From NCBI RefSeq assembly GCF_021172045.1, contig NZ_CP087164.1:3348001-3412000 (forward strand): a stretch of DNA of 64,000 nt, read 5' to 3'. Every line of letters begins with the position of its first letter. Position 1 is the first letter of the stretch. The DNA is from Capillimicrobium parvum (GTDB lineage Bacteria; Actinomycetota; Thermoleophilia; Solirubrobacterales; Solirubrobacteraceae). This document shows positions 49,667 through 52,216 of this stretch, piece by piece. The notes beneath the pieces are model-generated. The model ran no database searches, had not been told where the DNA came from, and saw only the letters and a program-made list of their open reading frames with translations. A program made the translations under genes and the position numbers.

Positions 49667-49840
49667 TCAGTCGCGCCGGAGCGCGTCCTTGACCTTGTCG
49701 GCGGCGTCGCCGACCTTGTCCTTCACGGAGCCGGAGGCCTGATCGACCTTGCCCTCCCGCTGCAGGTCCTTGTCGTCCGTCAGGTCGCCGGCGGCTTCCT
49801 TGATGTTGCCCTTCGCCCGATCCATCGAACCGTCGCCCAT
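49667..49840 (-). CDS. CsbD-family stress protein
   Basis: A 57-residue hydrophilic protein. The CsbD pattern is clear: GSMDRAKGNIKEAAGDLTDD, and QREGKVDQASGSVKDKVGDA. GAGAGGAG lies 7 bases before the ATG at 49840. CsbD proteins are induced in general stress, often by sigma-B; the biochemical role is unknown. Confidence 0.9.
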   Translation of the reverse strand: MGDGSMDRAKGNIKEAAGDLTDDKDLQREGKVDQASGSVKDKVGDAADKVKDALRRD

Positions 49841-49912: not shown

Positions 49913-50884
49913 TCAGTCCGGCGGCGCCACGCAGCGGTTGCGCTGGACCCCGAGCCCCGTGATCGAGCCCTCCATGACGTCGCCCGGCCGCAGCCACCGG
50001 CCGCCGTGGTGCGCGGCGTTGCCCGCCGGCGAGCCGGTGAGCAGCAGGTCGCCGGGCCGCAGCTCGATCAGGCTGGAGGCATGCTCGACGAGCCGGTCGA
50101 TGCCGAAGATCATGTCCGCGGTCGACTCGTCCTGCATGGTCTCGCCGTTGACCTTCAGCGTGATCCGCAGGTCGTACGGGTCGGCGACGAACTGGCGCGG
50201 CACGAGGTACGGGCCGGTCGGGAAGAACGTCGGGCGGACCTTCGTGGCCAGGAAGTCGGTCATCGGGAAGTTCGGCCGGTCCATGACGTCGCGGGTGCTG
50301 ATGTCGTTGGAGATCGTGTAGCCGGCGACGTGGTCCATCGCGTGCTCGCGCGACACCCGCCACGCCGGGCGTCCGATGACGACGGCCAGCTCGAGCTCCC
50401 AGTCGTGCTCGACGCCGGGGCCGTGGAGGATCACGTCGTCGCGCGCGCCCGACAGCGCGCCGGGCAGGCCGGCGAACACGAACGGCAGGCCGCGCTCGGC
50501 CAGCCCCTCGACGAAGCTCGTGCTCTCGGCGACCAGATCATCGTCGGAGAGCGCCGAGCCGTGCCGCCGCTCCGCCGCGAAGCGCATCTGGACGAGGTGA
50601 CGCCGGTAGTTCGCGCCCGCGCACAGAACCTGGCCGGCAGGCGAAACCGGGATCCGCACGTCGGCGTCCGCCATCGCCACGCCGCCGGACAGCGGCCCCG
50701 CCGCCAGCTCCGCGAGCCGTTCGAAGCTGCGCTCCCAGTTCTGCAGCAGCGACCACGTCGTGACGCCGTCGTCGCCGAGCAGGGAGCGCAGGTCGTGCGC
50801 GGTCTCCTCGACGACGAGGGCGGGAAACGGACGGGCCCCGCCGTCGGCGAGCGTCGCGAGCTGAAACGGCGGTCGGGCGGTGAT
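49913..50884 (-). CDS. Fumarylacetoacetate hydrolase family protein, apparent AUC start
   Basis: A 323-residue FAH-family enzyme (hydrolysis or decarboxylation of beta-diketo acids). The core has CAGANYRRHL, metal ligands in HDWELELAVVIG, GYTISNDISTRD and GDLLLTGSPAG. The first canonical start, GTG 50680, would cut off about 68 residues that are clearly homologous: FQLATLADGGARPFPALVVE and LQNWERSFERLAELA. Reading back, the frame reaches ATC at 50884, 5 bases after a perfect AGGAGG (50890-50895), with no ATG, GTG or TTG between. I therefore place the start at AUC; a mutation or sequencing error of ATG is the alternative. Confidence 0.75.
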   Translation of the reverse strand: MTARPPFQLATLADGGARPFPALVVEETAHDLRSLLGDDGVTTWSLLQNWERSFERLAELAAGPLSGGVAMADADVRIPVSPAGQVLCAGANYRRHLVQMRFAAERRHGSALSDDDLVAESTSFVEGLAERGLPFVFAGLPGALSGARDDVILHGPGVEHDWELELAVVIGRPAWRVSREHAMDHVAGYTISNDISTRDVMDRPNFPMTDFLATKVRPTFFPTGPYLVPRQFVADPYDLRITLKVNGETMQDESTADMIFGIDRLVEHASSLIELRPGDLLLTGSPAGNAAHHGGRWLRPGDVMEGSITGLGVQRNRCVAPPD

Positions 50885-50889
50885 GGCTG

Positions 50890-50895
50890 CCTCCT
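50890..50895 (-). promoter_or_regulatory. Shine-Dalgarno site that decides the AUC start
   Basis: Perfect AGGAGG on the minus strand, 5 bases ahead of ATC at 50884-50882. It is the best ribosome-binding site near this gene and fixes the start position. Confidence 0.7.
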
Positions 50896-51019
50896 GATCG
50901 GGTCGCGCAAACGGCGCGATCGTAGAGGGCGCGCGACCCGAACGCGAATCTCCGCTCGTATCTGGGCGCCCGCGCCGCCGGCCTCACCGATCCGGCCTCG
51001 AGACCTTCCCGCCCAGCCT

Positions 51020-51049: not shown

Positions 51050-52216
51050 GTGGCCCGATCCGACGCGGTGCCGACGACCGATGCCGCCAGGACGGCGCAG
51101 CTGGCCCTGCTCGTCGACAGCGTCGTCGACTACGCGATCTTCCTGCTCGATCCGGCCGGCCACGTCGCCACCTGGAACGCCGGGGCGGAGCGGATCAAGC
51201 GGTACCGCGCCGACGAGATCATCGGCCGGCACTTCTCGGTCTTCTACACCGAGGACGACCGCGCCCGCCGCTACCCGCAGTACGAGCTCGAGGTCGCCAC
51301 CCGCGAGGGGCGCTTCGAGGACGAGGGCTGGCGGGTGCGCGCCGACGGCACGCGGTTCTGGGCCAACGTCATCATCACCGCCCTGCGCGGCCCCGACGGG
51401 TCGCTCGAGGGCTTCGGCAAGGTGACGCGCGACCTCTCGGCGCGCCGGGAGGCGGAGGAGACGCTGCGCCGCGCCCAGGAGCAGCTGGCGCGGTCCAACG
51501 AGGAGCTCGACCGCTTCGCCGTGGTGGCGGCACACGACCTCACGGAGCCGATCGCCACCGTCGCGGGGTTCGCGCGGCTGCTGTCGGAGCGCCACGGCGC
51601 CTCGCTGCCGCCCGAGGGCCGGGAGTTCCTCGGCCACATGCTCGCGTCGGCCGACCGGATGCAGCGGCTCGTCGGCACGCTTCTGATGTATGCGCGTTCG
51701 GGCCGGTCGCCCCACGAGGCGACCGCCGTGGACGTCAGCCAGGCCGCCCGGCACGTCATCGCCGACCTCGCCACGCAGATCCGCGACCGCGGCGCCCAGG
51801 TCATCGTCAACCTCGACCCCGGCGTGTGCGTGTGCGCCAACCGCTCCGAGGTCGAGCTCGTCCTGCAGAACCTCATCAGCAACGCGGTGAAGTTCGCCGA
51901 CGACGAAACGCCGGTCGTGGCGGTCAGCGCCGAGCGCGACCCGGATGCCGATGGCGGCTGGATCGTGAGCATCACCGACAACGGCCCGGGCATCGACCCG
52001 GCCGACCAGCGCCGCATCTTCGAGGCGTTCGAGCGCGCGCCGGTCGACGCTGCGCGGCGCGGGACGGGCCTCGGCCTGGCGATCTGCGAGCGCGTCGTGA
52101 CCCGCCGGGGCGGCCGGATCGGCGTCGAGTCGGCGCCCGGCGAGGGCAGTCGGTTCTGGTTCGCGCTCCCCGAGCCGGATGGATCTCCCAGCTCGGTCTC
52201 AGAGATCGCCCGGTAG
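51050..52216 (+). CDS. PAS-domain soluble histidine kinase
   Basis: A 388-residue kinase from GTG 51050 with no membrane span. A PAS domain (about 20-135) has AIFLLDPAGHVATWNAGAER and HFSVFYTEDD, close to blue-light/redox PAS-PAC sensors but lacking an obvious LOV Cys motif. The phosphorylated His162 is in VVAAHDLTEPIATV. The ATPase domain has NLISNAVKF, DNGPGIDPAD and GTGLGLAI. The H-box is like that of the CHASE3 kinase at 25963. No response regulator is adjacent, so its partner is elsewhere; the CheY-like protein at 27510 is possible. Confidence 0.9.
   Translation: MARSDAVPTTDAARTAQLALLVDSVVDYAIFLLDPAGHVATWNAGAERIKRYRADEIIGRHFSVFYTEDDRARRYPQYELEVATREGRFEDEGWRVRADGTRFWANVIITALRGPDGSLEGFGKVTRDLSARREAEETLRRAQEQLARSNEELDRFAVVAAHDLTEPIATVAGFARLLSERHGASLPPEGREFLGHMLASADRMQRLVGTLLMYARSGRSPHEATAVDVSQAARHVIADLATQIRDRGAQVIVNLDPGVCVCANRSEVELVLQNLISNAVKFADDETPVVAVSAERDPDADGGWIVSITDNGPGIDPADQRRIFEAFERAPVDAARRGTGLGLAICERVVTRRGGRIGVESAPGEGSRFWFALPEPDGSPSSVSEIAR

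What the first reader, a model, noticed from the sequence alone, without database searches (positions are those of the whole stretch)
50882..50896. Fumarylacetoacetase-family gene appears to start at AUC behind a perfect AGGAGG
Seen: in-frame homologous coding extends about 68 codons upstream of the first canonical start (GTG 50680), reaching ATC exactly 5 bases after AGGAGG; no ATG, GTG or TTG lies between. Known: AUU/AUC starts are very rare, infC being the classic autoregulated case. Inference: a natural non-canonical start, a recent ATG-to-ATC mutation that lowers expression, or a sequencing error.
Basis: partly seen in the sequence, partly recalled or inferred. Interest (0 to 1): 0.6.

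Follow-up and report, generated by a model that had tools for sequence, protein, structure and literature searches.

The report
Enzyme gene starting at rare AUC
A metabolic enzyme gene in an actinobacterium carries the rare codon ATC, behind a perfect ribosome-binding site, exactly where its relatives have an ordinary start codon; it is most likely a real but weak start, of a kind already known from a few bacterial genes, and only reads or protein data can exclude a sequence error.

Summary
On the minus strand AGGAGG (50895-50890) stands 5 bases before ATC (50884-50882). The frame is closed upstream by TGA 50986-50984, has no ATG/GTG/TTG until GTG 50680, and encodes 323 residues of a fumarylacetoacetate-hydrolase-family enzyme. 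Homologues have canonical starts at or near this column; three (TTG, ATG, and ATG in the genome's own paralogue) are exactly on it. Many solved relatives begin at residue 5-7. The ATC site is unusually unstructured, as true starts are; GTG 50680 is structured like internal codons and has no SD. In a scan of 2.4 Mb of this genome it is the one convincing perfect-SD site without a canonical start. Best reading: a lineage-specific switch to AUC, still initiated thanks to the strong SD, giving reduced enzyme. A silencing mutation or a base error cannot be excluded: no orthologue above 61% identity was found. Natural ATC starts are known (Streptomyces infC, Listeria rnhC), so this is a new member of a known kind. 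In passing: pth in this order repeatedly has only CTG as a possible start (26 of 66 informative loci, 20 as CTGA overlaps with the rplY stop), a stronger lead than the finding itself.

The parts
49913..50884 (-). FAH-family hydrolase gene read from ATC (323 aa plus stop)
   Evidence: Pfam FAA_hydrolase E 5e-55 at residues 86-317; homologues 44-61% identical over nearly the whole length
50882..50884 (-). ATC at the start column (proposed AUC initiation codon)
   Evidence: TTG (L005), ATG (L115) and ATG (paralogue L113) at the same column; most other close homologues start within six residues
50890..50895 (-). perfect Shine-Dalgarno AGGAGG, 5 nt before ATC
   Evidence: only 81 of 1,991 modelled genes have a perfect AGGAGG at 4-10 nt
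50850..50915 (-). weakly structured translation initiation region
   Evidence: MFE -14.4 kcal/mol, z +1.63; 0.7% of internal codon windows are as open
50681..50884 (-). N-terminal 68 codons that only a start at ATC would translate
   Evidence: invariant W50 and L57; confidently folded beta/alpha domain; GC3 0.93 against 0.67 upstream of ATC
50678..50680 (-). first canonical codon in frame (GTG), rejected as the main start
   Evidence: no Shine-Dalgarno in the sequence upstream; structured, -31.1 kcal/mol; not a shared canonical column in the homologues listed
50984..50986 (-). in-frame TGA closing the frame upstream
51050..52216 (+). divergent PAS histidine kinase gene (neighbour)
   Evidence: Pfam PAS, HisKA, HATPase_c
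49667..49840 (-). CsbD-like small protein gene downstream (neighbour)
   Evidence: Pfam CsbD E 1.1e-16

Best explanation
The gene's start codon has changed, in the lineage of this organism, from a canonical codon (ATG, GTG or TTG) to ATC, and the full-length enzyme is still made by initiation at AUC. The perfect AGGAGG five bases upstream and the open mRNA hold the 30S subunit on the site, initiator tRNA pairs with A and U and mismatches at the third base, and the protein begins with fMet. Because IF3 discriminates against such pairing, output should be well below that of AUG. Shown here: the sequence, the start column, the SD, mRNA openness and conservation of the N-terminal domain. Inferred: that the base is real, that AUC is used, that output is low. 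Whether low output is selected or merely tolerated is unknown; for a stand-alone accessory catabolic gene, tolerated drift seems likelier than regulation.
For: Start column: homologues begin canonically at or near ATC, with TTG (L005), ATG (L115) and ATG (own paralogue L113) exactly on it. Many solved family members align from their first residues with model residue 5-7. SD: perfect AGGAGG at spacing 5, seen at only about 4% of gene starts in this genome. Openness: -14.4 kcal/mol at ATC against a mean of -22.6 at 426 starts and -26.9 at 416 internal codons; GTG 50680 is -31.1. N-terminus: W50 and L57 invariant in 22 homologues, residues 7-68 folded at high pLDDT. Frame intact over 324 codons with the conserved acidic residues E163, E165 and D194 present. 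Precedents: infC ATC and sigR GTC in Streptomyces (PMC5472188); rnhC ATC in Listeria, fixed and experimentally confirmed (PMC13068326); citZ AUA confined to one S. aureus lineage, the non-canonical sites there giving about 10% of AUG in poor medium (PMC13009471).
Against: No relative shows ATC here, so there is no conservation of the codon itself. Switches to ATC are very rare: among 61,358 ancestral AUG starts in 36 genome triplets no change to AUC is reported (PMC5622118). The finding is one base in one assembly without reads. A wrong or inactivating base would look the same.
Confidence: 0.65

Rival explanations
1. Sequence error: the genome really has ATG (or another canonical start) and the C is a base-call or consensus error.
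For: A single base in one assembly; true ATC starts are extremely rare (PMC5622118); no relative has ATC.
Against: The assembly is a single contig with few broken frames in the 2.4 Mb sample: 23 of 2,103 gene models have notable coding signal before the first canonical start, and those read closely were often overlapping genes or remnants. From ATG the needed error is G to C, an uncommon error type (own knowledge, untested).
Confidence: 0.17
2. Recent loss of function: a real mutation destroyed the start, little or no protein is made, and the gene is an incipient pseudogene.
For: The gene is patchily distributed (7 of 146 genomes of the family at E 1e-60), stands alone between a histidine kinase and CsbD, whereas several homologues sit beside another FAH gene, a cyclase or an amidohydrolase; a paralogue in the same genome (L113, 45%) may back it up.
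Against: No other lesion in 324 codons; SD and open leader intact; AUC is functional as a start codon in E. coli, at reduced rate, as summarised in PMC13068326, so some protein is expected.
Confidence: 0.12
3. Translation starts at GTG 50680 and yields a 255-residue protein that keeps the catalytic domain.
For: The Pfam domain begins at residue 86, and one FAHD1 structure aligns only from model residue 78.
Against: No SD, strongly structured (-31.1 kcal/mol), column not a shared canonical start in homologues; it would delete a conserved folded domain.
Confidence: 0.04

Closest known systems
Streptomyces infC (ATC) and sigR (GTC) non-canonical starts (PMC5472188)
   Same: Actinobacterial genes with a non-canonical start; in sigR a strong SD stands upstream and translation is repressed by IF3
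   Different: Those are translation and stress regulators, and the sigR GTC is conserved across Streptomyces; here a catabolic-type enzyme gene with no relative sharing the codon
Listeria monocytogenes rnhC ATC start (PMC13068326)
   Same: Same codon, in a gene other than infC
   Different: Fixed in the species and experimentally confirmed
Staphylococcus aureus citZ AUA start (PMC13009471)
   Same: A metabolic gene with a lineage-restricted non-canonical start
   Different: AUA, measured by reporter; here AUC, no measurement
YisK / 2,4-diketo-3-deoxyrhamnonate hydrolase branch of the FAH family (8sky, 8gsr)
   Same: Same fold over residues 6-323, Z about 35, about 30% identity
   Different: Substrate of the window enzyme unknown

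Membership tests
FAH (fumarylacetoacetate hydrolase) superfamily | FAA_hydrolase domain above the Pfam cut-off | tested here: met
   186.9 bits against cut-off 23.9
FAH (fumarylacetoacetate hydrolase) superfamily | conserved acidic metal-site residues | tested here: met
   E163, E165 and D194 invariant in 22 sequences; their role as metal ligands is taken from general knowledge of the family
Fumarylacetoacetase proper (TIGR01266) | score above the NCBIfam equivalog cut-off | tested here: not met
   28.9 bits against 375.3; the title word 'fumarylacetoacetase-family' holds only for the superfamily
Genes with natural AUU/AUC/AUA starts | ATH codon at the orthologous start column behind a good SD, no canonical alternative | tested here: met
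Genes with natural AUU/AUC/AUA starts | non-canonical codon conserved in relatives (supporting, not strictly required) | tested here: inconclusive
   the homologues examined have canonical starts, but none above 61% identity was available
Genes with natural AUU/AUC/AUA starts | initiation shown by peptide, reporter or ribosome profiling | not testable with these tools
   needs wet work
IF3-autoregulated infC type | gene encodes IF3 with a non-canonical start | tested here: not met
   the window gene is a hydrolase; infC of this genome appears to start with GTG

The most novel reading that the evidence does not exclude
This lineage tolerates and maintains near-cognate start codons more widely than known: an SD-driven AUC start keeps this hydrolase at a low, IF3-sensitive level, alongside a conserved CUG start of the essential pth gene coupled to rplY in the same order of Actinomycetota.
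Probability: 0.25. Interest if true: 0.6.

Novelty: new member of a known kind. Interest (0 to 1): 0.35.

Why it matters
Standard gene callers accept only ATG, GTG and TTG, so such genes are truncated or missed; this one would lose 68 residues including a conserved domain. A confirmed AUC start in an ordinary catabolic gene would add to a very short list and show that a strong SD and open leader can carry it. The pth CUG pattern noticed on the way would matter more: a recurrent, apparently functional CUG start in an essential translation gene.

Tried and rejected
Start upstream of ATC: none, the frame has no canonical codon back to TGA 50986. Start at GTG 50680: rejected on SD, structure and homology. 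Conserved ATC in relatives: not found in genus, family, class and phylum searches or in 80 named genome loci. Codon-position substitution test of the N-terminus: third positions only slightly in excess, not informative at this divergence. Sigma-70 promoter scan: nothing found. infC as a comparator in this genome: apparently a GTG start. A Bestrophin-like gene with a possible ACG start had no orthologue in the family and was left open. The paper measuring all 64 codons (PMC5397182) is not held; its result is cited only second-hand.

Full report
Observation. The minus strand reads CCCGATC AGGAGG CAGCC ATC ACC GCC CGA CCG CCG TTT CAG. ATC is at 50884-50882 and AGGAGG at 50895-50890, five bases apart. 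The frame is closed by TGA at 50986-50984, and the first ATG, GTG or TTG in it is GTG 50680, 68 codons after ATC. Read from ATC the gene gives 323 residues.

What the gene is. It is a member of the fumarylacetoacetate-hydrolase superfamily (Pfam FAA_hydrolase, E 5e-55, residues 86-317). It does not reach the cut-off of any NCBIfam equivalog, fumarylacetoacetase included, so the substrate is unknown. The AlphaFold2 model (mean pLDDT 91.6) matches YisK and 2,4-diketo-3-deoxyrhamnonate hydrolase over residues 6-323 with Z about 35 and about 30% identity. The gene lies between a divergent PAS histidine kinase and a CsbD-like gene, whereas several homologues sit beside another FAH gene, a cyclase, an amidohydrolase, a glyoxalase-family or an FAD-binding gene. 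It therefore looks like a stand-alone accessory gene.

Where translation starts. Four lines point to the ATC column. First, close homologues begin with canonical codons at or near it: TTG in L005, ATG in L115 and ATG in the genome's own paralogue L113 are exactly on the column, L004 and L114 start at column 3, L003 at 4, L118 and L116 at 6; the Streptomyces homologues have a GTG several residues upstream. Second, many solved members align from their first residues (numbered about 0 to 2) with model residues 5-7. Third, the ATC site is open: -14.4 kcal/mol over 66 nt, against a mean of -22.6 for 426 modelled starts and -26.9 for 416 internal codons of the same genome; only 0.7% of internal windows are as open. 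GTG 50680 has -31.1 and lies among internal codons. Fourth, the 68 residues lost by a start at GTG hold two residues invariant in 22 homologues, W50 and L57, and form a confident beta/alpha domain.

How unusual it is. I read 2.4 Mb of the 5.95 Mb genome in stretches, trained a codon model on 0.8 Mb of it and modelled 2,103 genes. This gene has the second-largest coding signal lying before its first canonical codon; the larger value belongs to a short 134-codon ORF. Of the 23 flagged genes it is the one with a perfect AGGAGG before an ATG-like codon at a credible start; the only other perfect-SD entry (B+4184136) lies next to an ordinary ATG. A separate scan for AGGAGG followed at 5-8 nt by a coding frame without a canonical start found this site and one weaker TGC site, against 33 canonical sites. 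The combination is not explained by codon composition alone.

Why ATC. Three causes remain: a real start codon switch that still works, a real switch that silences the gene, or a base error. The search of about 1,000 genomes gave no orthologue above 61% identity, and the three congeneric genomes lack the gene, so the age of the change cannot be set. Published reconstruction reports no change from AUG to AUC among 61,358 ancestral AUG starts (PMC5622118), so the prior is low for the first two. Yet natural ATC starts exist: infC in Streptomyces (PMC5472188) and rnhC in Listeria, fixed and experimentally confirmed (PMC13068326). Lineage-specific non-canonical starts in metabolic genes also exist (citZ AUA in S. 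aureus; the non-canonical sites there give about 10% of AUG output in poor medium; PMC13009471). The intact 324-codon frame, the perfect SD and the open leader favour a working start. I give 0.65 to a real, used, weak AUC start, 0.17 to sequence error, 0.12 to silencing and 0.04 to a start at GTG 50680; these are judgements, not computed values. No error rate of the assembly was measured; the remark that it looks clean rests on the few broken frames among the flagged genes.

Mechanism. From established knowledge of initiation, AUC pairs with the fMet-tRNA anticodon at two positions; IF3 destabilises such complexes, and a strong SD and an unstructured site can compensate. The protein should start with fMet and be made at a fraction of the AUG level. 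Selection for low output is possible but nothing here shows it.

A second, stronger lead. The same coding-signal scan pointed to pth (peptidyl-tRNA hydrolase, TIGR00447). In this genome no canonical start lies between the rplY stop and the conserved WLVVGLGNPG; CTG stands where the three congeners have TTG, GTG and GTG. Among 66 informative loci from the order, 40 have a canonical codon in that interval and 26 only CTG; in 20 of these the CTG overlaps the rplY stop as CTGA (loci). The peptides after CTG match those after canonical starts: CTG AGC CTC TTC CGG/CGC against ATG AGC CTG TTC CGC (L265) and GTG AGC CTG TTT CGC (L279); CTG AAG GTC TTC against TTG AAG CTC TTC (L259). Seven of seven genomes of one genus (g12) have the CTGA overlap. 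This is hard to explain by errors and suggests a natural CUG start, probably through termination-reinitiation coupling with rplY (inference). Literature searches for CTG start codon with translational coupling in bacteria, and for CUG start codon with pth, brought nothing relevant. The upstream gene was recognised as rplY by its sequence, from memory, not by a family search. The pattern also shows that near-cognate starts are tolerated in this lineage, which modestly raises the odds for the AUC start.

Taxonomy.

Noticed in passing
L211:7561-8133 (G000:C1:1047561-1048133), and loci L241-L269, L271-L316: pth (peptidyl-tRNA hydrolase) has only CTG as a possible start after the rplY stop in this genome and in 25 other loci of the order (26 of 66 informative), 20 of them as a CTGA overlap with the rplY stop; N-terminal peptides match relatives with ATG/GTG/TTG. 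Looks like a recurrent natural CUG start by translational coupling.
   Followed up: partly
L156:17728-18537 (G000:C1:3557728): Bestrophin-like gene (PF14023) whose coding signal starts at ACG CTC TTC TTC behind GAAGGAAGCGCC, with no ATG/GTG/TTG until about codon 20; possible ACG start or altered ATG; no orthologue in 146 family genomes.
   Followed up: partly
G000:C1:143139 (in L126): ABC-transporter ATPase fragment that begins in frame at LLRCIDLLDEIDDGDVLLDG without the Walker A part; looks like a remnant or a broken frame.
   Followed up: no
G000:C1:3629031 region, minus strand (in L180): An xseB-like gene is followed by a polyprenyl-synthetase-like gene whose frame has no canonical start near its coding onset, while GTG ACC ACG AGC in another frame overlaps the xseB stop; possible one-base indel or CTG AGC GAG TAC start.
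   Followed up: no
L112:4902-5849: Second, 45% identical FAH gene of the same genome with an ATG at the same start column, near another FAH gene and a substrate-binding-protein-like gene.
   Followed up: partly
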